Source: Geothrix paludis
GTDB lineage: Bacteria > Acidobacteriota > Holophagae > Holophagales > Holophagaceae
Assembly (NCBI RefSeq): GCF_022808815.1
Contig: NZ_JAKZLC010000003.1
Location: forward strand, 310,001-374,000
Direction of reading: 5' to 3'
DNA: 64,000 bases
Of this stretch, positions 48,669 through 61,760 are shown piece after piece. Every line of letters starts with the position of its first letter. Positions within the stretch are counted from its first letter, which is position 1. Under the pieces are notes generated by a model that worked only from the letters and a program-made list of their open reading frames with translations, was not told where the DNA came from and made no database searches. Both the position numbers and the translations under genes were made by a program.

Positions 48669-48721
48669 TCGATGATTGCGTCAGCTCGACACAGCTCGAC
48701 ATCTCTCCGCGCTTGATCGCT

Positions 48722-48808
48722 CACTCGCGGCAGGAATTGGCACCTTGCTTCCGCAGGTTGCCAAGGTTTCACAGGGCCCGTCCCTCCACCTTTCTGGATA
48801 ACTCGCTA
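48722..48808 (-). promoter_or_regulatory. SAM-I (S-box) riboswitch controlling metY-metA-lysC
   Basis: On the minus strand it shows the conserved core: ATCCAGAAAGGTGGAGGGA, GGCCCTGTGAAACCTTGG, GCAACC, a variable P4-like stem, AAGGTGCCAA and TTCCTGC, closed by complementary outer arms (GCGAGT near both ends). This matches the SAM-I aptamer consensus closely. Binding of S-adenosylmethionine would favour the downstream terminator and shut off methionine synthesis. The 327-base gap between metY and metH holds this riboswitch, its terminator and the metH terminator. Confidence 0.95.
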
Positions 48809-52327: not shown

Positions 52328-52615
52328 TCACAGTCCCAGGTAGTCGATGGCCACGTCGCCGTGGACGGTCACCTGGCAGGCGAGGCGCTGGTCGGCCGGC
52401 GCGTCCAGGCCCTGGAGGAAGTCCCGCTCCTCCGGCCCCATCTCGCTGCAGTGGCCCAGGCCCTCGGCCACGCGCACGCGGCAGGTGCCGCAGGAGCCCG
52501 TGCGGCAGCCGAAGGTGATGTCCGCCCCGGCGGCGTCGGCGATCGTCTGCAGCGGCGTCCCCTCCGGTGCTTCGACCAGCAGATCTTCCAGCAGGAAATG
52601 GACCTTCACGCTCAT
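52328..52615 (-). CDS. 2Fe-2S ferredoxin
   Basis: A 95-residue plant-type ferredoxin. The cluster ligands are visible as CRTGSCGTC (C-x4-C-x2-C) around residue 36, with the fourth Cys in RLACQV near residue 79. It is embedded in the methionine operon: its ATG overlaps the stop of the HMT-MTHFR gene (ATGA), and metH begins one base after its stop codon. It is not needed for the standard reactions. It could deliver electrons for cobalamin reactivation or MTHFR (inference). Confidence 0.93.
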   Translation of the reverse strand: MSVKVHFLLEDLLVEAPEGTPLQTIADAAGADITFGCRTGSCGTCRVRVAEGLGHCSEMGPEERDFLQGLDAPADQRLACQVTVHGDVAIDYLGL

Positions 52616-54471
52616 GCGACCTCCCGTTTCGGCAGGAGCGGCGCCACGAGCTCGACCTGGCCGAAGGGGGCGCTGAGCTGGAGGCCGCGGATGCGGGGGC
52701 GGATGGCCTCGATGGTCTCCTGGGCGATGGCCAGGCCCTCCTTGACCTGGTCGTCGGCGGTGGCCCACCTGGCCATGCGGGTGAGCAGGGCGGGCGGCAC
52801 GAGGACGCCGGGTACCTCGTTGGCCATGAACTCGGCGTTGCGCAGGCTCTTGAAGGGCCAGATGCCGGCGATGACAGGCAGGTCCGGGGCCACACCCTCG
52901 GCGAAGTCCAGGAAGCGGAAGAGACTATCCGGGTCGAAGACGGGCTGGGTGATGGCCCACTGGGCGCCGGCCTCGACCTTGTAGCGGAACCGGGTCTTCT
53001 CCCGCTCCAGGTCCGGGGCCACGGGATTGGCGCCCACGCCCACGCTGAAGGAGGTGGGCTTGCCGATGCTGGCGCCGCCGAGATCGAGGCCCGTGTTGAG
53101 GCGCTTGAGCATGTTCACGAGGCCGATGGCGTCCACGTCGAAGACCGCCGTGGCCTGGGGGTACGGCCCCAGCTTCGGGGGATCGCCGGTGACGGCCAGG
53201 ATGTTGCGCAGACCCAGGCCCGCCGCGCCCAGGAGGTCGCTCTGCATGCCCAGCAGGTTGCGGTCCCGGCAGGCGTAGTGGAGGATGGTCTCCACGCCCA
53301 GCTGCTGCTCGATGATGAGGGCCGTGGCCAGCGCGGACATGCGGGCCATGGCCCGGGGGCCGTCCGGCACGTTGATGGCGTCCACGCCCAGGGCCCGGCA
53401 CTGGCGGGTCTTCGCCAGGAGCTTGTCGTACTCCATGCCCTTGGGCGGCACGAGCTCCACGGTGTGGGTGAACTCGCCCTGGGCGAGCTTGAGGCTGAAG
53501 CGGCTGCGGAAGGCGAAGGGCACCTCGGGCTGCGGCTGCTCGTGGGGCTTGAGCTCGTAGCGTCCCCCGGCCTGGACGAAGGCCCGCTCCTGGCGGAAGG
53601 CCCCCCGCATGGCGCGGATGTGGGCGGCCGTGGTGCCGCTGCAGCCGCCCACGGCGCGGGCGCCGCCGGCCAGGGCCCGGGCCGCGAAGCCGCCCAGGTA
53701 CTCGGGGCTGGCCCCGTAGATCAGGCGGCCATCCACCAGGTGTGGCAGGCCGGGGTTGGGCAGCAGGACGATGGGCCGGGTGGTGACGCCCTTCAGGTGC
53801 TCCAGCAGCCGCAGGTGCGGCGCGGGGCCGTTGCCGCCGATGAGGCCCACCAGGTCCGCGCCCCAGGTGTCGAGCTGCTTGATGAACCACTCGGGCTCGG
53901 AGCCGAACAGGGCCTGGCCCTCGTCGTTGGTGGTCATCAGGGCGGCGAGGGGCAGGTCGCGCACCTCCTGGACGGCGAGGATGGCCTGGTGGATCTCGTT
54001 GAGATCCTCGAAGCCCTCCAGGACGACCAGATCGGAACCGGCCTCGATGAGCGCCTCCGCCTGCTCGCGGAAGAGGGCCCGGGCCTCGTCGAAGGAGGTG
54101 GGTCCCCAAGGCTCGATGCGAACGCCCAGGGGCCCGATGCAGCCCGCCACCCAGGCGCGGGCCTGCTGCTGGGCGATGGCCTGCTTCGCCAGGGCCACGC
54201 CCTCGCGGTTGATGGCGTCGAGCTGGCCCTCCAGGCCCCGGGCGGCGAGCTTCAGCCGGTTGGCGCCCCAGGTGTTGGTGGTGAGCACCTGCGCGCCGGC
54301 GGCGAGGAACTCGCCGTGGATGGCCAGCAGCAGGTCCGGCGTCTTGAGGTTGCACTCCTCGAAGCTCCGCTGCAGCGTGATGCCACGGTCATGCAGGGCC
54401 GAGGCCGTGCTTCCGTCGAAGAGGAAACACTCGCCCTCGTCGAGGGCCTGCCGGAAGGTGGATTCGGTCAT
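52612..54471 (-). CDS. Homocysteine S-methyltransferase-like/methylenetetrahydrofolate reductase fusion
   Basis: A 619-residue fusion (YitJ-like). Residues 1-~300 are a homocysteine methyltransferase TIM barrel. Residues 325-619 are MetF-like MTHFR with FTHTVELVPPKGMEYDKLL, HYACRDRNLLGMQ, AVTGDPPK, YKVEAGAQWAITQPVFDPD and IAGIWPFKS. In the first domain two of the three zinc ligands are missing: the GxNC position reads GGNG (Gly215) and the final GGCC reads GGCS (Ser278). Only Cys277 remains. Methylene-THF reduction is well supported, and methyl transfer is doubtful. It is the first gene after a SAM riboswitch. Confidence 0.9.
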   Translation of the reverse strand: MTESTFRQALDEGECFLFDGSTASALHDRGITLQRSFEECNLKTPDLLLAIHGEFLAAGAQVLTTNTWGANRLKLAARGLEGQLDAINREGVALAKQAIAQQQARAWVAGCIGPLGVRIEPWGPTSFDEARALFREQAEALIEAGSDLVVLEGFEDLNEIHQAILAVQEVRDLPLAALMTTNDEGQALFGSEPEWFIKQLDTWGADLVGLIGGNGPAPHLRLLEHLKGVTTRPIVLLPNPGLPHLVDGRLIYGASPEYLGGFAARALAGGARAVGGCSGTTAAHIRAMRGAFRQERAFVQAGGRYELKPHEQPQPEVPFAFRSRFSLKLAQGEFTHTVELVPPKGMEYDKLLAKTRQCRALGVDAINVPDGPRAMARMSALATALIIEQQLGVETILHYACRDRNLLGMQSDLLGAAGLGLRNILAVTGDPPKLGPYPQATAVFDVDAIGLVNMLKRLNTGLDLGGASIGKPTSFSVGVGANPVAPDLEREKTRFRYKVEAGAQWAITQPVFDPDSLFRFLDFAEGVAPDLPVIAGIWPFKSLRNAEFMANEVPGVLVPPALLTRMARWATADDQVKEGLAIAQETIEAIRPRIRGLQLSAPFGQVELVAPLLPKREVA

Positions 54472-54550
54472 GGATGCGCCTGGTGGTGATCAGGGCGGTC
54501 CTCATCGGCATCCAGGGGGTCTCGGGTCAGTCCGGGTCGTTCGGTATCTT

Positions 54551-54570
54551 CCCCCCGGCATGCCGGGGGC
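54551..54570 (-). other. Perfect GC palindrome after the second SAM riboswitch
   Basis: CCCCCGGCATGCCGGGGG (54552-54569) is an 18-base perfect palindrome directly after the aptamer. It lacks a downstream T-run on the minus strand (GAAGATACC follows), so it may act in an expression platform rather than as a classic terminator. It lies about 80 bases before the gene start. Confidence 0.55.
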
Positions 54571-54645
54571 AGGAGTTGGCACCTTGCGTTCGCAGGTTGC
54601 CAAGGTTTCACAGGGCCTTTCCCTCCACCTTTCTGGATAGCGCTA
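54565..54645 (-). promoter_or_regulatory. SAM-I (S-box) riboswitch controlling the HMT-MTHFR/ferredoxin/metH operon
   Basis: On the minus strand it reads ATCCAGAAAGGTGGAGGGA, GGCCCTGTGAAACCTTGG, GCAACC, AAGGTGCCAA and CTCCTGC, nearly identical to the metY leader. The core match is strong. Its control would tie methyl-THF production, the ferredoxin and MetH to the SAM level. Confidence 0.94.
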
Positions 54646-54716: not shown

Positions 54717-56159
54717 TCAAGCCTGCGGCGGCGGGGCGACCCCTTCCCCGGCCGGATGCGCCGTGAGGCCCTTGCGCTTCAGGTGGCCCCAGCTGTCCTT
54801 GCCGCGGATCCAGTCGAAGGTGCCCCGGAGCCGCCACCACAGTGTCAGCTGCCGGTAGCCAAAGTTCTCGGCCACGGCCGCGAACAGGAGCAGGGCCCAG
54901 GCCTTGAGGCCCTGGTAGCGGTGGCCACTGATCTCCTGGAGCACCACGGCCACCACGGAGTTCAGCACGCCCAGGAGCAGGGCCACGTAGATGAAGAGGA
55001 TGGCGAAGGGCGTGTTCAGCGAGTGGGTCCAGACGGACCAGGCGAAGACGAGGTAGCCGCCCACCTCGACGATGGGGGCCAGGGCCTCGAAGAAGATGAA
55101 GTAGGGCATGGAGAAGAAGCCGATGCGCCCGAACTTCGGGTTGAAGCACATTGCCCGGTGCCGCCAGAGGGTCTCCAGCAGGCCGCGCTGCCAGCGGTTC
55201 CGCTGCCGCCCCAGGCCTCGGAAATCCTCGGGCACCTCGGTCCAGCACACGGGATCGGGCACCAGGGTGATGTGATGGGGCCGCTTCCACTCGCGCAGGC
55301 AGCGGTGGAGGCGCACGACGAGCTCGAAGTCCTCGCCGATGGTGGCGGTCTCGAAGCCTCCCGCGGCCACCACCAGGTCCTTGCGGAACACGCCGAAGGC
55401 GCCGCTGACGATGAACATGCTGTCCAGGGAGGCCAGGCCCACGCGGGCGAAGAGGAAGGCGCGCAGGTATTCCACGATCTGGAAGCGCGCCAGCCAGGAT
55501 CCCGGCAGGAAGATGCCGCGGATGCCCATGGGGGTGATCTTGCAGCCGTTCACGGGCCGCACCACGCCGCCGGAGGCCACCATGTCCGGGCGGTCCATGA
55601 AGGGCCGGGCGATGCGGAGGAGGGCATCGTTCTCCAGGAGGCTGTCCCCGTCCATGCAGCAGACCAGCGGGTAGCGGGCCAGGTTGATGCCGCAGTTCAG
55701 GGCGTCCGCCTTGCCGCCGTTGGCCTTGTCCACCACCACCAGGTTGGGCACGTAGGCGCTCTCGTAGATGCCGCGCACCTCCTGGGTGGGCAGCAGGTGG
55801 CGCACGACGCGCTGGCTCGGCTGGAGCTTGAAGGCCTTGACCAGGCGCTCCAGGGTGGCGTCCGTGCTGCCGTCGCTCACCACCACCACCTGGAACTCGG
55901 GATAGCGCAAGCTGATGAGGCTGTTGACGCTGGGCACCGCGCCGGCCTCCTCGTTGTAGACCGGGCAGATCAGCGTGATGGGCTTGTAGTGGCTGGTTTC
56001 GAAGGCCGTGTCGAGACGGTCGATCCTCACCGCGTCCAGGTAGCTGCGGATGGAGAAGAAGGCCCGCAGGATTAGCGACAGGTTCGTCAGCTGCATGGCC
56101 AGGTAGTAGAGGAGGATGCCCCACTCAGCGAAGGCCAGGATGACGGCGCGGAAGGTCAC
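54717..56159 (-). CDS. Family 2 processive-type glycosyltransferase, membrane-bound
   Basis: A 480-residue GT2 protein. An N-terminal membrane segment (VILAFAEWGILLYYLAMQL) precedes the GT-A domain (about 58-330), with ICPVYNEEAG, SDGSTD, NGGKADALNCG, the metal site CCMDGDS (Asp170, Asp172), GEDFEL (275-280) and QRNRWQRG (319-326). Three or four C-terminal helices follow. The D, D, D/E, QxxRW set marks polysaccharide synthases such as PgaC or NfrB. No PilZ domain is seen. It is the last gene of a five-gene operon, and its start overlaps the HEAT gene. Confidence 0.9.
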   Translation of the reverse strand: MTFRAVILAFAEWGILLYYLAMQLTNLSLILRAFFSIRSYLDAVRIDRLDTAFETSHYKPITLICPVYNEEAGAVPSVNSLISLRYPEFQVVVVSDGSTDATLERLVKAFKLQPSQRVVRHLLPTQEVRGIYESAYVPNLVVVDKANGGKADALNCGINLARYPLVCCMDGDSLLENDALLRIARPFMDRPDMVASGGVVRPVNGCKITPMGIRGIFLPGSWLARFQIVEYLRAFLFARVGLASLDSMFIVSGAFGVFRKDLVVAAGGFETATIGEDFELVVRLHRCLREWKRPHHITLVPDPVCWTEVPEDFRGLGRQRNRWQRGLLETLWRHRAMCFNPKFGRIGFFSMPYFIFFEALAPIVEVGGYLVFAWSVWTHSLNTPFAILFIYVALLLGVLNSVVAVVLQEISGHRYQGLKAWALLLFAAVAENFGYRQLTLWWRLRGTFDWIRGKDSWGHLKRKGLTAHPAGEGVAPPPQA

Positions 56160-57307
56160 AGGTGCCCCCGTTCATCGGCCCACTCGAGCCGCTCCCGGGC
56201 CATGTCGCGGGCGAAGCGGTCGGAGGCTGGATCGTCCGCCAGCCAGGACAGGGCGGACACGCCGGAGTGGCCCAAGTCCACGAGGCTCTGAGCGGCGTTG
56301 CGGCGGACCTCGTAGACGGGATCAGTCATCAGCGGGAGCAGGTCGGGAACGGCCGAGGGGCCGCCCAGCACGCCCAGAGCCCGGGCCACCTGGGCGCGGA
56401 TCTCCCAGGCCGGGCTGGCGGCGAAGCTCAGGACCCGCGGGTAGACCTCTGGATCCGCCAGAATGATGAGGGCCTTGAGGACGGAGGCCCGGAGGTCCAC
56501 GCTCGGCACGTCCAGCAGCCAGAGCAGGCGCGGCAGGGACTCGCGGTGACGGTGGGAGCCCACCAGCAGGGCGTAGAGAATCCAGGGTTCGGGGTTCTGG
56601 TTCGGCGACTCCAGGTTCTCCTTCATCCAGGGCAGCAGGTCCGGCCCGAACCCTTCGAGCACCCGGAGGAGGCGCTCCCGCTGGTAGAGCTCTTCGCGCA
56701 TGACCCAGGCCAGCACCGGCGCGGCGAACCTCAGGCTCCGGCTGTGGGTCAGGGCTTGGGCCGCCGTGTGGGCCACGAAGGGGACCGGATCATCGAGCAG
56801 CGGCAGAACCTGGTCCAGGTAGCCCTCCATGCGGACCCCGGGCTTCCAGCGCCAGGGGCGCTCGGTCACCGGGGGCGGCGCGTGCTCCGCCGGCTCGTCC
56901 AGGCGGAAGACGGAGATCTCCTTGGCCGCCTGGGCCCGGACGTTGGGATCGCGGTCCTTCAGCCGCTGGGGCAGGGAGGCGTGGAGGCCCATGCCCAAGT
57001 AGAGCTCCCGGAGCAGCTCGAATTCCTGCCCGGCGATGGTGGACTGGTAGCGGGCGAGGAAGTCCCTGAACAGCCACCGGTCGGCCCAGGAGACCGGTCC
57101 GAAGGACCCGTCCTCGTAGCCCTTCTTGAACAGGTAGTCCGTGAGCTGGGTTTCCCAGGCCTGGTAGCAGGCGATGCGATGCCGGTTCTGGCGGTCCTTG
57201 CGGTACTGCAGGATGGTGCCCACCAGCACCAGCCCGCCGGTCAGGGCCAGCAGGCCGAACGTCGCCCAGCGGAGGACCGGCAGCAGGGGGACATGGGGAA
57301 AGGGCAT
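56156..57307 (-). CDS. Membrane-anchored HEAT-repeat protein
   Basis: A 383-residue protein. One N-terminal helix (VLRWATFGLLALTGGLVLVGTIL) anchors it. The rest is alpha-helical with HEAT repeats, for example RDPNVRAQAAKEISVFRL, DDPVPFVAHTAAQALTHS, VDLRASVLKALIILADPEV, AWEIRAQVARALGVLG and YEVRRNAAQSLVDLGHSG. Such proteins act as scaffolds. It lies between a receiver gene (12-base gap) and the GT2 gene (four-base overlap), so it likely assembles or regulates the synthase. Confidence 0.87.
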   Translation of the reverse strand: MPFPHVPLLPVLRWATFGLLALTGGLVLVGTILQYRKDRQNRHRIACYQAWETQLTDYLFKKGYEDGSFGPVSWADRWLFRDFLARYQSTIAGQEFELLRELYLGMGLHASLPQRLKDRDPNVRAQAAKEISVFRLDEPAEHAPPPVTERPWRWKPGVRMEGYLDQVLPLLDDPVPFVAHTAAQALTHSRSLRFAAPVLAWVMREELYQRERLLRVLEGFGPDLLPWMKENLESPNQNPEPWILYALLVGSHRHRESLPRLLWLLDVPSVDLRASVLKALIILADPEVYPRVLSFAASPAWEIRAQVARALGVLGGPSAVPDLLPLMTDPVYEVRRNAAQSLVDLGHSGVSALSWLADDPASDRFARDMARERLEWADERGHL

Positions 57308-57319
57308 GGACAGGATGGC

Positions 57320-57724
57320 TCACCCCACGCGGTGGGAGCGTTCGTAGAGCCGCCAGAGCCGCTCCACCATCACCTGGACCGAGATCGGCTTCGCCATGTA
57401 GTCGTCCGCGCCGGCCGCCAGGCAGCGCACCATGTCCTGCTCGCTGTGGTTGCTGGAGAGCAGCAGGATGGGGATGCGGCCCTTGGGCGGCGCGAGGTCC
57501 CGCACCTCCTGCACCAGCCGGAACCCGTTCATGGCGGGCATCATGAGGTCGGTGGTGATCATGTCGACCTGTTCGCGGTGGAGGATCTCGAGGGCCTCCA
57601 TGCCGTTGGCGGCCACGAGCACCTTCAGCCCCTCCATCTCCAGGCGGACCTGGATGATCTTCGCGGTCGCAGGGTCGTCTTCGACCACCAGGATCGTCGT
57701 TTGGGCTGGCCAGCGTCGGGTCAT
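57320..57724 (-). CDS. Single-domain response regulator (receiver only)
   Basis: A 134-residue receiver with acidic pocket LVVEDDPATAK, phosphoacceptor Asp in ITTDLMMPAMNG, the Ser/Thr position in LLLSSNH and the lysine in YMAKPIS. There is no output domain. It lies inside the exopolysaccharide-type operon (20-base gap to the barrel gene, 12 to the HEAT gene). It probably acts by protein contact, and the HEAT protein is an attractive partner (inference). The kinase is not encoded nearby. Confidence 0.92.
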   Translation of the reverse strand: MTRRWPAQTTILVVEDDPATAKIIQVRLEMEGLKVLVAANGMEALEILHREQVDMITTDLMMPAMNGFRLVQEVRDLAPPKGRIPILLLSSNHSEQDMVRCLAAGADDYMAKPISVQVMVERLWRLYERSHRVG

Positions 57725-57744
57725 CGGAAAAAGTCTACCCCTTT

Positions 57745-59442
57745 CTACCAGAACCATCGATTCCCGCGTACCCGGATGCCGAACCGGAGGGTGTGGTCGC
57801 GGTAGCTGGTGGGGTCCGTGGGATCCGCGATGGGCAGGCCCGCCACGCTCTGGCTCCAGGAGGCGAAGAGGGTGGCGGCGGAGCCCCCGGGCGTCCAGGT
57901 TCCAGCCAGGGTGTAGCCCCAGGTGAACTGGCTGGCGGTCTGGTTCACCACCTGGCTTCCGCCCCACCCGTCGAGGGCGACCTCCCAGCGCTCTTCGCGC
58001 CGCACCGAGACGCCGGCGGTGGCGCCGTAGTAGCGGTAGCGCTCGGGGTTGAAGAACCCGATGCGGAGGCTCTGGTCCTGGTCGATGAACCGGGTGGCGA
58101 GCCCCGCGCGCCACTCCCCCCACTCGAAGGGGAAGCGATGCCCCGCCTCTGCCCGGACGCCCGTCCGGGCGGCGCCGGGGGAGAGGAAGGCCCGCTCCAG
58201 GGACAGGGCCGCATGGTCGAGGGTCTGGTTGAAGACCCAGGTTCCTCCCAGCCCCCAGGTCCGGGTGAAGGTACGGAGGTCCACGGCCCGGGGGGTGGCC
58301 AGGTTCGGCGCGAAGGTGTGGGACAGCACCAGGTTCAGGCCCGGCGCTGCGCGCCATCCGAGGGCCAGGCTGTGGAAGCCCGCGGGTTCCCCGCCCACGT
58401 CATCCACCCGGCCCACCTGGGCCGAGGCCATGACCCGCGAGCCCAGGGGATGGCTGAGGCCCAGCGACCACTCGCGGGGCTTGCGCTCGGCCTGGCCGCT
58501 CTGGTCGAGCAGATCGAAGCTGCCGCCGGCCCGGAGGCTCCCGTCGAAGAACGGCACCGCCGCGTCCACCCGCTGGGCCTGGGCGCGCAGGCCCTCGTTG
58601 GAGTCCGTGCGGGTCTGGGAGAGCTCGATCCAGGGGCCCTGGGCATCGGCCAGGCCGCGGAGCCGGGCCTGGGCGTCCTCGCGCGTGTCCGGCTGGTCCA
58701 GCAGGGCCTCAGTGCGGGCCCTTGCCCGGCGGAGACGGCCCATCCGCTGGTCGATCTGGGCTTGCATGAGCTCTGCCTCGGGGCTCCGGGCGTCCTCGGA
58801 TCCGAGACTGCCCAGACGCCGCTCGGCCGCTTCGGGATCGCCGGCCCAGAGGTCCAGCTGGGCCAGCCCCAGGATCGCCTGGCGGTTTCCCGGCGTCCGG
58901 GCGAGGGCCTCCTGGTAGGCCCGGCGGGCCTGTCCGTGCCGCCCGCGCCATCCGAGCACCCGGCCCCGGAGCAGGTGGAAGTCCGTGTCGGCGGGATGGG
59001 CCTGCAGCCAGGCGTCCGTCAGGGCCAGGCTCTGGTCCATGCGCCCGTCCCAGCTCAGGTAGGTGGCCGTGTCCAGGGTGGCCTGGCGGTCGCCCTTGGC
59101 CACGTAGGGCCGGAGGATCCCCACGGCCTCGCCGAAGCGTCCGGACCAGGCGGTGACCCGGGCCAGCACCGGTTCGGATTCCGCCGCCAGCTCCGGATGG
59201 ACCTCCCGGCGCCGCTTCAGGTCGCGGATGGCCTCGTCGAACCGCTTCATCCAGCTGAGGGTCCGGGCCCGCTCCAGGAGGGCGTCGGGCTGGTCCTTCC
59301 AGAGCTCCAGCATCCGGGTGTAGACCGCCACGGCCTCGGTGAACCGCTTCTGCGAGCGCAGCTCCCGGGCCTGCTTCAGGAGCGCGGCGGCATCCGGAGC
59401 CGGGGCGGGCTCCTGCATGGCGGGCGGGGCGGGATGGATCAT
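57745..59442 (-). CDS. TPR protein with C-terminal YaiO-type outer-membrane beta-barrel
   Basis: A 565-residue protein. Residues 15-~265 are tetratricopeptide repeats (AAALLKQARELRSQKRFTEA, KDQPDALLERARTLSWMKRF, HGQARRAYQEALARTPGNRQ). From about 285 to the end are alternating amphipathic strands closing with GIRVRGNRWFW, an aromatic C-terminus expected of an outer-membrane barrel. This resembles PgaA/NfrA export porins. No signal peptide is visible at the start (MIHPAPPAMQEPAP), which is odd for an outer-membrane protein. Its start overlaps the preceding gene by four bases. Confidence 0.82.
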   Translation of the reverse strand: MIHPAPPAMQEPAPAPDAAALLKQARELRSQKRFTEAVAVYTRMLELWKDQPDALLERARTLSWMKRFDEAIRDLKRRREVHPELAAESEPVLARVTAWSGRFGEAVGILRPYVAKGDRQATLDTATYLSWDGRMDQSLALTDAWLQAHPADTDFHLLRGRVLGWRGRHGQARRAYQEALARTPGNRQAILGLAQLDLWAGDPEAAERRLGSLGSEDARSPEAELMQAQIDQRMGRLRRARARTEALLDQPDTREDAQARLRGLADAQGPWIELSQTRTDSNEGLRAQAQRVDAAVPFFDGSLRAGGSFDLLDQSGQAERKPREWSLGLSHPLGSRVMASAQVGRVDDVGGEPAGFHSLALGWRAAPGLNLVLSHTFAPNLATPRAVDLRTFTRTWGLGGTWVFNQTLDHAALSLERAFLSPGAARTGVRAEAGHRFPFEWGEWRAGLATRFIDQDQSLRIGFFNPERYRYYGATAGVSVRREERWEVALDGWGGSQVVNQTASQFTWGYTLAGTWTPGGSAATLFASWSQSVAGLPIADPTDPTSYRDHTLRFGIRVRGNRWFW

Positions 59443-61760
59443 CGGAGCAACCTCGGTTCGTCGGGAGTGGCGGCCAGGGCTTTCTGGTAGATGGCGAAGG
59501 ACAGCTTGCGGAAGCGATGGAAGGTCGGTCGGCTCCAGGTCGGCCAGGTGTAGAGCGGCGGCACGGGGATGCTGCCGCGAACGGCAGCGGGAAGGGTGAG
59601 GCGGAGGGCGCTCGGACCTTCCCCGAGCGGTTTGTCGGCATCCAGGATCGCCAACACGAATCTGAAGCCGGTCGACTTGGACGATTCCAGAGGGTCGCCG
59701 TGTTTCCTCCCGGGATCATCCAGGACCATCCGCTGGCTCGGATCCGTGACCTGGAGCAGTGTCCAGGGGATGCGCGCCTCGAGGAACCCCTGGCCCCCCG
59801 GGCCCCGGCCCGCCTGCCATTCGGCTCGGGAGTCGAAGGCGGGATCGGCGCGGTCCTGCGTCCCCTGGCGGAGCCAGCCGATCTCCGTGGTGTGGCCCGG
59901 GAACCGCGTTCCGTCCCGGCCGATCCGAGGATGGTTGCTCTTGGCTGTGGGCAGGAGGAAGCGGCCCGCCTCGTTGGCCACGCTCTGGTAGCGGTGCTGG
60001 GGCAGGGGCCGGTAGTCGGGGATGGCGTAGGGGGCATCCACGAACACCCCCGTGTGGTCCGGCCCCTGGAAGAGGATCACGAACTCCAGGCCAGCCTCGC
60101 TGCGCGGGCCCGCCACCCAGGGAAGCCGGTGGTCGCCCCGGCGGACGTCCACGGTGTCGAGGCCGACGAGGATCGCTTCCTTCGAGAAGTCCACGGGGCG
60201 CGGGAGGAACAGACCGAGGTGGAGCCAGCCCTCGTCCGCCACGACCTTCAGGGAGAGGCCGCGGCCCTCGAGGTACGCCGGAATCCGGGCCCAGTCCTCC
60301 GCCTTGCCGTCGATCAGGATGGAAGGCCCCTTGGCGCCGGGCCGGTAGGCGATGAGCCCGTAGTTCTCCTCGGCGTCCATGGCGTTGTACCAGAGTGGCT
60401 TCCGCTCGAAGGGGCGCTCGAAGGGCAGGGTGAGCCAGTTCTTCTTGAACCACTCGTCGATCCAGGCAAAGAGCACGCCCCCGGCGCAGCCCGCGTCGTA
60501 GATGTCCTGCTGGAGCCGGGCATCCTGCTCGCCCTGCTCGCGCTCGCCCTGCCCGCCATGGGTCATGCCCTGGGGTTGCCAGTGGGCCACGATGCGGGAG
60601 GAGGGCACGCCGAATTCCGCGATGAGCACCGGATGGTGGGCGTGATGCCTCATCAGGTCGGCGAGGTATCCCGCGTAATGGCTGGGGCCCAGGTGATCCC
60701 GGGCCTGGCCGTAGCCGGGGTCCAGGTTCATGAAGTCGGGGTAGTACGGATAGGCGTGGTAGCTGGCGAAGAGGCCGGCCCTGAGGTTTGCCGTGCCATC
60801 GAACTTCTCCATGTCCAGGCTGGCGGCGTCCTCGTCGTCGGGATCCGGGTTCGGGGCCTCGACCGCCATGCCGAGCTTCCGCCGCAGGGCGCGATCCTCC
60901 TGTTCCGTGGGTTCTGTGATGTGGAAGAGGGGGTCCAGCGTGGGCCAGTTGGTGAAGGCGATGGGCCGCTGGGCCTGGAACCGGTCCCATTCCTCGGCGA
61001 GGAAGCGGTCCAGGCTCTGGGCGAGGAATCGCTCCATGGCGTGGCCCTCCCGCACCGTGACGAAGCGGCCGGTCCAGGTCGAGGTCCCGGGGTGTTGGCG
61101 GTTGAAGGCCACCACGCTGGAGGATTCCCATTCGCGGCCCAGAATGACGGCCACGGTCCAGGGGCTGACGTCCGCGTCAAAGGCGCCGCTGGCGTGGCCC
61201 GGGCGGGAGGGGATGCGGGCGCGGCCGTGAAGCACGTCGGCCACGTCCCGCATCTCCCGATGCCAGGCCGCGAGCCAGGCGGGATCCAGGAAGTCGTGGC
61301 CGGGGGGCAGCTCGGTCCAGACGCCGTGGATGAGCCACATGGGCTTCCGGGCGCCGAGGTTGTAGGCGCGCAGGGCCTCGTAGAATGCGGGTGGATGGAT
61401 GGTGTAGACGCGGATCGTGTTGAAGCCCGCCTCCGCCATCTCGCGGATCCACCCGTCGTAGGTGGCCCGGTCCGGGAACTCGCTCGGGTGCCGGCCGGGA
61501 ATGGCGGCGCCCAGGTTCACGCCTTTGACGTAGAAGGGCCGCCAGCCGCCCGCGCCATCCGCCACTTCCAACCGGCGGTCGTGGGCGCGCGCCGGGATCT
61601 GGGGCTGGGAGGGGCGAGGGACCGGGCGCGGAAGGTTGGTCCGCTGGCGGGAGGGAGGCGCCGGAGTCGCCGACAGGAGGGCCTCACCCCCCGGGAGACC
61701 CAGGGAAAGGGCGAGGCCGAGCATCTTCAGAGCTGGTAAACGCCGGATCATCTGCTTCAT
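59439..61760 (-). CDS. Exported glycoside-hydrolase-like protein of the exopolysaccharide locus
   Basis: A 773-residue protein with a signal peptide (LPALKMLGLALSLGLPGGEA). Residues 65-~440 look like a GH5/GH2-type TIM barrel: YVKGVNLGAAIPGRHPSEF, FNTIRVYTIHPPAFYEAL, VAVILGREWESS (Glu210, likely acid/base) and PVLIAEFGVPSS (Glu382, likely nucleophile). Residues ~470-750 form a second beta-rich domain (ILIDGKAEDWARIP, LVGLDTVDV, EIGWLR) like carbohydrate-binding family-9 modules. It is first in the operon and may trim the polymer made by the GT2. Confidence 0.78.
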   Translation of the reverse strand: MKQMIRRLPALKMLGLALSLGLPGGEALLSATPAPPSRQRTNLPRPVPRPSQPQIPARAHDRRLEVADGAGGWRPFYVKGVNLGAAIPGRHPSEFPDRATYDGWIREMAEAGFNTIRVYTIHPPAFYEALRAYNLGARKPMWLIHGVWTELPPGHDFLDPAWLAAWHREMRDVADVLHGRARIPSRPGHASGAFDADVSPWTVAVILGREWESSSVVAFNRQHPGTSTWTGRFVTVREGHAMERFLAQSLDRFLAEEWDRFQAQRPIAFTNWPTLDPLFHITEPTEQEDRALRRKLGMAVEAPNPDPDDEDAASLDMEKFDGTANLRAGLFASYHAYPYYPDFMNLDPGYGQARDHLGPSHYAGYLADLMRHHAHHPVLIAEFGVPSSRIVAHWQPQGMTHGGQGEREQGEQDARLQQDIYDAGCAGGVLFAWIDEWFKKNWLTLPFERPFERKPLWYNAMDAEENYGLIAYRPGAKGPSILIDGKAEDWARIPAYLEGRGLSLKVVADEGWLHLGLFLPRPVDFSKEAILVGLDTVDVRRGDHRLPWVAGPRSEAGLEFVILFQGPDHTGVFVDAPYAIPDYRPLPQHRYQSVANEAGRFLLPTAKSNHPRIGRDGTRFPGHTTEIGWLRQGTQDRADPAFDSRAEWQAGRGPGGQGFLEARIPWTLLQVTDPSQRMVLDDPGRKHGDPLESSKSTGFRFVLAILDADKPLGEGPSALRLTLPAAVRGSIPVPPLYTWPTWSRPTFHRFRKLSFAIYQKALAATPDEPRLLR

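What the first reader, a model, noticed from the sequence alone, without database searches (positions are those of the whole stretch)
54717..61760. Five-gene synthase-dependent exopolysaccharide operon of unfamiliar composition
GH-like exported protein, TPR/beta-barrel, receiver, HEAT-repeat anchor and GT2 synthase are packed with 4-base overlaps or gaps of at most 20 bases. GT2 plus TPR-barrel plus periplasmic hydrolase is the logic of PgaABC and NfrA/NfrB. A lone receiver next to a membrane HEAT scaffold in the same operon is not part of those systems. I suggest phospho-dependent control of the synthase through the HEAT protein instead of PilZ/c-di-GMP. This is the best candidate here for a new system.
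Basis: partly seen in the sequence, partly recalled or inferred. Interest (0 to 1): 0.72.

Follow-up and report, generated by a model that had tools for sequence, protein, structure and literature searches.

The report
Receiver–HEAT–GT2 polysaccharide synthase operon
A sugar-polymer factory whose synthase almost always sits next to a membrane-anchored HEAT scaffold protein, and usually next to a small phospho-switch protein, recurs in widely different bacteria and archaea; I found no experimental study of it in the open papers I could search.

Summary
They overlap by 4 bases or lie 12-20 bases apart. The set is conserved, not accidental. Of 64 GT2s of this clade in 297 Acidobacteriota genomes, 63 have the HEAT gene immediately upstream, 55 a receiver upstream, 58 a TPR/outer-membrane barrel nearby and 25 this GH. 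Beyond the phylum, HEAT-GT2 pairs occur in Halobacteria (with receiver), Deinococcus, Paenibacillus, Planococcus, alphaproteobacteria, Legionella and Bacteroidota. These GT2s form one clade (100/100) apart from PgaC/IcaA. The barrel models as 8 TPRs plus 16 strands, like BcsC/PgaA. The GH is a distant clan GH-A (GH157-like) enzyme with both catalytic Glu conserved. HEAT is inner-membrane anchored and faces the cytosol. REC keeps its phospho-Asp, and kinases or Hpt proteins adjoin the operon in some relatives. So it works like a synthase-dependent exopolysaccharide system, with HEAT as a likely obligate partner. Phospho-control through HEAT fits but is untested. I found no experimental description. 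A HEAT-GT2 pair is listed, uncharacterised, in Clostridium perfringens NELoc-2.

The parts
54717..56159 (-). GT2 inner-membrane polysaccharide synthase (480 aa, GTG start); NGGKADALN, DGD, GED and QRNRW motifs; no PilZ or MshEN domain
   Evidence: Pfam GT2 hits; best NCBIfam model PgaC_IcaA, far below its cut-off (131.6 against 422 bits); invariant motifs; clade 100/100 with HEAT-linked GT2s
56156..57307 (-). HEAT-repeat protein with one N-terminal TM helix (about residues 15-33), HEAT domain predicted cytosolic
   Evidence: Pfam HEAT_2; hydrophobic stretch near the N-terminus followed by K/R-rich stretch in divergent members; directly upstream of GT2 in 63/64 loci
57320..57724 (-). single-domain response-regulator receiver (134 aa, no output domain), acidic pair, phospho-acceptor Asp and conserved Lys present
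   Evidence: Pfam Response_reg 5e-28; phospho-Asp invariant in 18 divergent RECs; within 3.5 kb upstream of GT2 in 55/64 loci
57722..57737 (-). predicted -10-like element TAGACT plus N7 plus ATG directly before REC (leaderless-type promoter)
   Evidence: conserved upstream of REC in Holophagaceae; loci; 19 genome matches against 3 for the reversed pattern
57745..59442 (-). TPR + 16-stranded outer-membrane beta-barrel export porin (565 aa); no clear signal peptide at this start
   Evidence: AF2 pLDDT 87, 16 helices + 16 strands; Foldseek best BcsC 9b8a, PgaA porin 4y25 (TMt 0.82), PelB 9h80; N-terminus
59439..61760 (-). exported clan GH-A (distant GH157-like) hydrolase with a beta-rich C-terminal region; putative catalytic E210 (after strand 4) and E382 (strand 7)
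   Evidence: no Pfam; profile match to LaGH157 9fz9, E382 aligning with E224; Foldseek best LaGH157; conserved residues

Best explanation
A synthase-dependent exopolysaccharide system. The GT2 polymerises a sugar nucleotide and passes the chain through the inner membrane (inferred from motifs and family). The HEAT protein, anchored in the inner membrane with its repeats in the cytosol, is a near-obligate partner or regulatory subunit of the synthase (inferred from 63/64 adjacency and its presence in bacteria and archaea). The lone receiver, when phosphorylated by a kinase or phosphorelay, binds the HEAT scaffold and switches the synthase on or off (inferred, not shown). The TPR-barrel guides the chain to the outer membrane and exports it, and the GH157-like enzyme trims it in the periplasm. 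REC-HEAT-GT2 is the synthesis and control cassette; GH+barrel is an exchangeable processing and export module.
For: Co-occurrence: of 64 clade GT2s from 62 of 297 Acidobacteriota genomes, 63 have HEAT immediately upstream, 55 REC upstream (48 abutting HEAT), 58 a TPR/OMP nearby and 25 the GH. The full five-gene order recurs in other families. Other phyla: REC-HEAT-GT2 in Salinirubellus and Halosolutus, kinase-RR-HEAT-GT2-kinase in Haloarcula, kinase/RR/barrel/HEAT/GT2/Hpt in Mesorhizobium, GH-HEAT-GT2 in Deinococcus, Paenibacillus and Planococcus. GT2 clade 100/100. Barrel structure. GH-A assignment. REC phospho-Asp invariant and HEAT TM topology. Regulator with Hpt and two RECs at L154. No PilZ in the GT2; the genome's three PilZ proteins are on other contigs.
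Against: No physical or genetic evidence of a REC-HEAT or HEAT-GT2 contact. REC is missing in 9/64 loci, and appears lost in G070 and G194 while relatives in the same family keep it, so it is not essential to the machine. Some neighbouring regulators carry GGDEF or EAL domains (L168, L131). The barrel of the window and its close relatives lacks a recognisable signal peptide. The GH model is poor (pLDDT 55). The polymer is unknown.
Confidence: 0.6

Rival explanations
1. HEAT is a structural or assembly subunit of the synthase (like BcsB or PgaD in role), and the receiver acts elsewhere, as in other free-standing receivers, so there is no REC-HEAT switch.
For: HEAT-GT2 persists without REC in Deinococcus, Paenibacillus, Planococcus, Bacteroides and Legionella and in Acidobacteriota loci without an upstream REC (9 of 64).
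Against: 48 of the 55 REC genes abut HEAT; the Halobacteria show the same REC-HEAT-GT2 triple.
Confidence: 0.3
2. A known Pga, Bcs or Nfr variant with lineage-specific extras.
For: Same logic of GT2 + TPR porin + periplasmic hydrolase; PgaC is the nearest NCBIfam model.
Against: The GT2 clade is separate from PgaC/IcaA at 100/100; no deacetylase, PgaD, BcsB, PilZ or MshEN domain found in the five genes; the GH is GH157-like.
Confidence: 0.05
3. c-di-GMP, not phosphorylation, sets output, through a non-PilZ site on HEAT or GT2; the REC proteins only tune local cyclases.
For: REC-GGDEF-EAL and GGDEF-REC neighbours at L131 and L168.
Against: Most loci have a plain REC; kinase/Hpt neighbours in Haloarcula, Mesorhizobium and Devosia.
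Confidence: 0.15
4. The GT2 is non-processive and glycosylates a lipid or protein; barrel and GH belong to another pathway that is merely adjacent.
For: GH+barrel can be on the opposite strand (G002, G032, and GH in G033).
Against: QRNRW and other processive-type motifs are invariant or nearly so; 58/64 loci keep a barrel nearby.
Confidence: 0.08

Closest known systems
PNAG system PgaABCD
   Same: GT2 synthase, TPR + 16-strand porin (PgaA; PMC9384988), periplasmic processing enzyme with a GH domain
   Different: no PgaB-type deacetylase, no PgaD; GT2 outside the PgaC/IcaA clade; HEAT and REC present; GH is GH157-like
Cellulose Bcs (BcsA/B/Z/C)
   Same: TPR-barrel closest in fold to BcsC 9b8a; synthase + periplasmic hydrolase logic
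   Different: no PilZ, no BcsB; different GT2
NfrA/NfrB (NGR glycan)
   Same: GT2 + outer-membrane TPR-barrel
   Different: no MshEN-type domain found in the GT2; HEAT/REC instead
YaiO/YaiP-type clusters
   Same: related HEAT-GT2 loci use YaiO (PF19413) barrels
   Different: the window's barrel is not PF19413; HEAT and REC are not known parts of yaiOP (from memory)
Clostridium perfringens NELoc-2 (PMC2879425)
   Same: published gene table lists VTC, CotH, a 685-aa protein, HEAT (377 aa) and GT2 'chitin synthase' (466 aa), the same layout as Planococcus L148
   Different: function not studied in that paper; no barrel, no receiver listed; its sequence was not compared here

Membership tests
Synthase-dependent exopolysaccharide system (general) | membrane GT2 with processive motifs | tested here: met
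   D96, DxD (D170/D172), D277 and QRxRW invariant across 21 divergent members; several hydrophobic stretches in the sequence
Synthase-dependent exopolysaccharide system (general) | TPR + outer-membrane beta-barrel exporter | tested here: met
   but signal peptide unclear in the window's copy
Synthase-dependent exopolysaccharide system (general) | makes and secretes a polymer | not testable with these tools
   needs mutants or biochemistry
PNAG (Pga) | PgaC-clade GT2 | tested here: not met
   separate at 100/100; 131.6 bits against a cut-off of 422
PNAG (Pga) | PgaB deacetylase + PgaD | tested here: not met
   no such domain among the five proteins
Bcs cellulose | PilZ on synthase, BcsB | tested here: not met
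NfrA/NfrB | MshEN-type c-di-GMP domain on the GT2 | tested here: not met
   only GT2-type or chitin-synthase-type domains at E < 0.1 apart from a DUF4079 hit at 0.099
GH157 (clan GH-A) | (beta/alpha)8 with catalytic Glu after strands 4 and 7 | tested here: inconclusive
   strand order fits and E382 aligns with LaGH157 E224, but the profile match is weak (E 0.002) and the model pLDDT is 55
Receiver-HEAT controlled synthase (proposed) | conserved HEAT-GT2 adjacency, REC adjacent | tested here: met
   63/64 HEAT, 55/64 REC
Receiver-HEAT controlled synthase (proposed) | phospho-dependent REC-HEAT binding | not testable with these tools
   no multimer prediction or experiment available

The most novel reading that the evidence does not exclude
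A widespread, undescribed class of polysaccharide synthase in bacteria and archaea, in which a membrane HEAT scaffold is the obligate regulatory subunit and a free-standing receiver gates polymer synthesis directly by phosphorylation, replacing PilZ/c-di-GMP control.
Probability: 0.4. Interest if true: 0.8.

Novelty: new variant of a known kind. Interest (0 to 1): 0.62.

Why it matters
The described synthase-dependent exopolysaccharide machines are few, and post-translational control of several of them runs through c-di-GMP (established knowledge). A conserved HEAT-GT2 pair found from Acidobacteriota to Halobacteria, usually with a receiver, would be a separate lineage of such machines with a two-component switch. 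The published C. perfringens NELoc-2 gene table shows the same pair in an animal-associated bacterium, so a function for the HEAT-GT2 class would also give that locus a hypothesis.

Tried and rejected
Pga/Bcs/Nfr membership was rejected on the tree and domain content. Sinorhizobium APS (CuxR) as a characterised prototype: considered from memory; the literature search found no matching gene description and no close Sinorhizobium hit appeared among the plasmid matches listed. Deinococcus DeinoPol dra0033 was read as a possible prototype; the paper describes an ExoP-like protein, so not this. Natural REC-HEAT or HEAT-GT2 fusions: none among the loci searched. Own-genome control GT2s L001 and L003-L006 have no HEAT within the 3.4-3.7 kb held. 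The genome search could not be centred on a plasmid locus of another phylum, so distribution outside Acidobacteriota rests on plasmid records only. The structure of REC with HEAT was not attempted: no multimer tool. The GH fold was tried and gave a low-confidence model. Literature searches for HEAT + GT2 + exopolysaccharide gave no characterised system in the open-access library; subscription papers are not covered. The survey of synthase-dependent operons, PMC7112194, has no mention of HEAT proteins or receivers.

Full report
What is there. The window lies in a Geothrix-like Holophagaceae genome (Acidobacteriota); close relatives in the same search carry the names Geothrix terrae, G. campi, G. 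oryzisoli and others. The five reported genes are all on the minus strand and packed as described: GH 61760-59439, TPR-barrel 59442-57745, REC 57724-57320, HEAT 57307-56156, GT2 56159-54717. Upstream on the same strand, 77 bases away, is a gene I read as pdhB from its sequence. Downstream is a SAM riboswitch and metF/metH-type genes.

Domain evidence. Pfam identifies TPRs, a receiver, HEAT repeats and a GT2. The GT2's nearest NCBIfam model is PgaC_IcaA at 131.6 bits, far below its cut-off of 422. No PilZ or MshEN domain is reported in it. The GH has no Pfam hit, nor has any of its 22 relatives a GH hit.

Conservation in the family. In 18 fetched Holophagaceae loci, REC-HEAT-GT2 stay together wherever the contig reaches, whereas GH+barrel can be divergent (G002, G032, and GH in G033) or absent and replaced (G013, G036). 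The replacement module in G013 is a 309-aa exported protein, a TPR protein, a sulfatase-superfamily protein and a YaiO-type barrel.

Conservation in the phylum. A GT2 profile search of 297 Acidobacteriota genomes found 64 GT2s in 62 genomes (37 of 167 genera). Of 64, 63 have HEAT immediately upstream, 55 a REC within 3.5 kb upstream on the same strand (48 abutting HEAT), 58 a TPR/OMP-type gene within 5.5 kb and 25 the GH. The full order GH-barrel-REC-HEAT-GT2 occurs in several other families (L123, L124, L127, L128, L131, L135, L139, L152, L163). Caveats: the 64 include 14 Geothrix genomes, and the search models contain some of these loci. In the window genome 57 receivers in 3.41 Mb give about a 6% chance per 3.5 kb. 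REC is optional: the orthologue is missing in G070 and G194 although relatives of the same family keep it.

Beyond the phylum. tblastn of plasmid records found HEAT next to GT2 in Salinirubellus, Halosolutus and Haloarcula (each with REC), Mesorhizobium, Erythrobacter and Devosia (each with RR and TPR or YaiO gene), Deinococcus radiophilus, Paenibacillus and Planococcus (each with GH), Bacteroides and Legionella. In Emticicia the gene before GT2 is annotated hypothetical, and its homology to HEAT comes from the profile search, whose model includes it. A reciprocal tblastn from the Planococcus GT2 recovered the same records. A tree with PgaC, IcaA and several deacetylase-GT2 fusions as outgroups puts all HEAT-linked GT2s in one 100/100 clade; outgroup sampling is limited and NfrB, NodC and HAS were not included.

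Parts and mechanism. HEAT: 26 divergent members all have a hydrophobic stretch near the N-terminus, and in nearly all of them K/R residues outnumber acidic ones after it, which by the positive-inside rule puts the repeats in the cytosol; this is where REC and the GT2 catalytic domain are. REC: the phospho-Asp is invariant and the conserved Lys nearly so. Kinases, Hpt or phosphorelay proteins adjoin in Haloarcula, Mesorhizobium, Devosia and L154, but a few neighbours carry GGDEF/EAL (L131, L168). Barrel: AF2 gives 16 helices and 16 strands (pLDDT 87), with BcsC, the PgaA porin and PelB among the best Foldseek matches. GH: the model is poor, but both profile and fold searches point to GH157; the E of IAEFG (E382) aligns with E224 of LaGH157, the residue changed in structure 9g4n, and E210 of GREWE follows strand 4, both nearly invariant.

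Promoter. Directly before REC in many Holophagaceae lies TAGACT-N6..8-ATG. Genome-wide this pattern occurs 19 times against 3 for the reversed control, as expected for leaderless promoters. I read this as a separate promoter for REC-HEAT-GT2. It is a prediction.

Interpretation. The layout works like a synthase-dependent exopolysaccharide system. It is not Pga, Bcs or Nfr by the tests in the table. The best-supported new element is the HEAT-GT2 pair. The REC-HEAT switch is a reasonable hypothesis that no result here tests directly. In the open papers I could search, none describes the system experimentally; one 2010 paper lists a HEAT-GT2 pair in C. perfringens NELoc-2 without function (PMC2879425). 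That layout matches Planococcus L148; I compared gene order and lengths only.

Unresolved. The barrel of the window and its nearest relatives starts MIHPAPPAMQEP, with no evident signal peptide, and in L047 an in-frame stop just upstream excludes a longer start. Relatives such as L123 and L143 do have signal-like starts. I cannot explain this.

Noticed in passing
54541-54643 and 48696-48804 (minus strand): Two SAM (S-box) riboswitches in the metF/metH region downstream of the operon.
   Followed up: partly
52328-52768 (minus strand): Small ORF whose C-terminal part looks like a [2Fe-2S] ferredoxin (CRTGSCGTC motif), between the homocysteine methyltransferase/MTHFR-like gene and metH; read from sequence only.
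   Followed up: no
57722-57737 (minus strand): TAGACT-N7-ATG before REC; the pattern is enriched in the genome (19 against 3), consistent with leaderless promoters in Geothrix.
   Followed up: partly
57745-59442 (minus strand): The outer-membrane barrel protein lacks a recognisable signal peptide here and in near relatives; unexplained.
   Followed up: partly
57308-57322 (minus strand): HEAT starts in the same reading frame as REC, only one TGA and four codons after it.
   Followed up: no
L056:10027-15548, L120, L121: Replacement module in relatives: TPR and YaiO-type (PF19413) barrel, with a 309-aa exported protein and a sulfatase-superfamily protein in L056, in place of GH+barrel.
   Followed up: partly
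L142:6805-8862, L148:4826-6892: GH relatives in Paenibacillus (second copy) and Planococcus have lost the GREWE and/or EFG motifs; possible pseudoenzymes.
   Followed up: no
L150, L146: Legionella adelaidensis YaiO-HEAT-GT2 sits with a nucleotide-sugar dehydrogenase and epimerases, hinting at a uronate- or pentose-containing polymer; Halosolutus L146 sits with glmS, hinting at an amino sugar.
   Followed up: no
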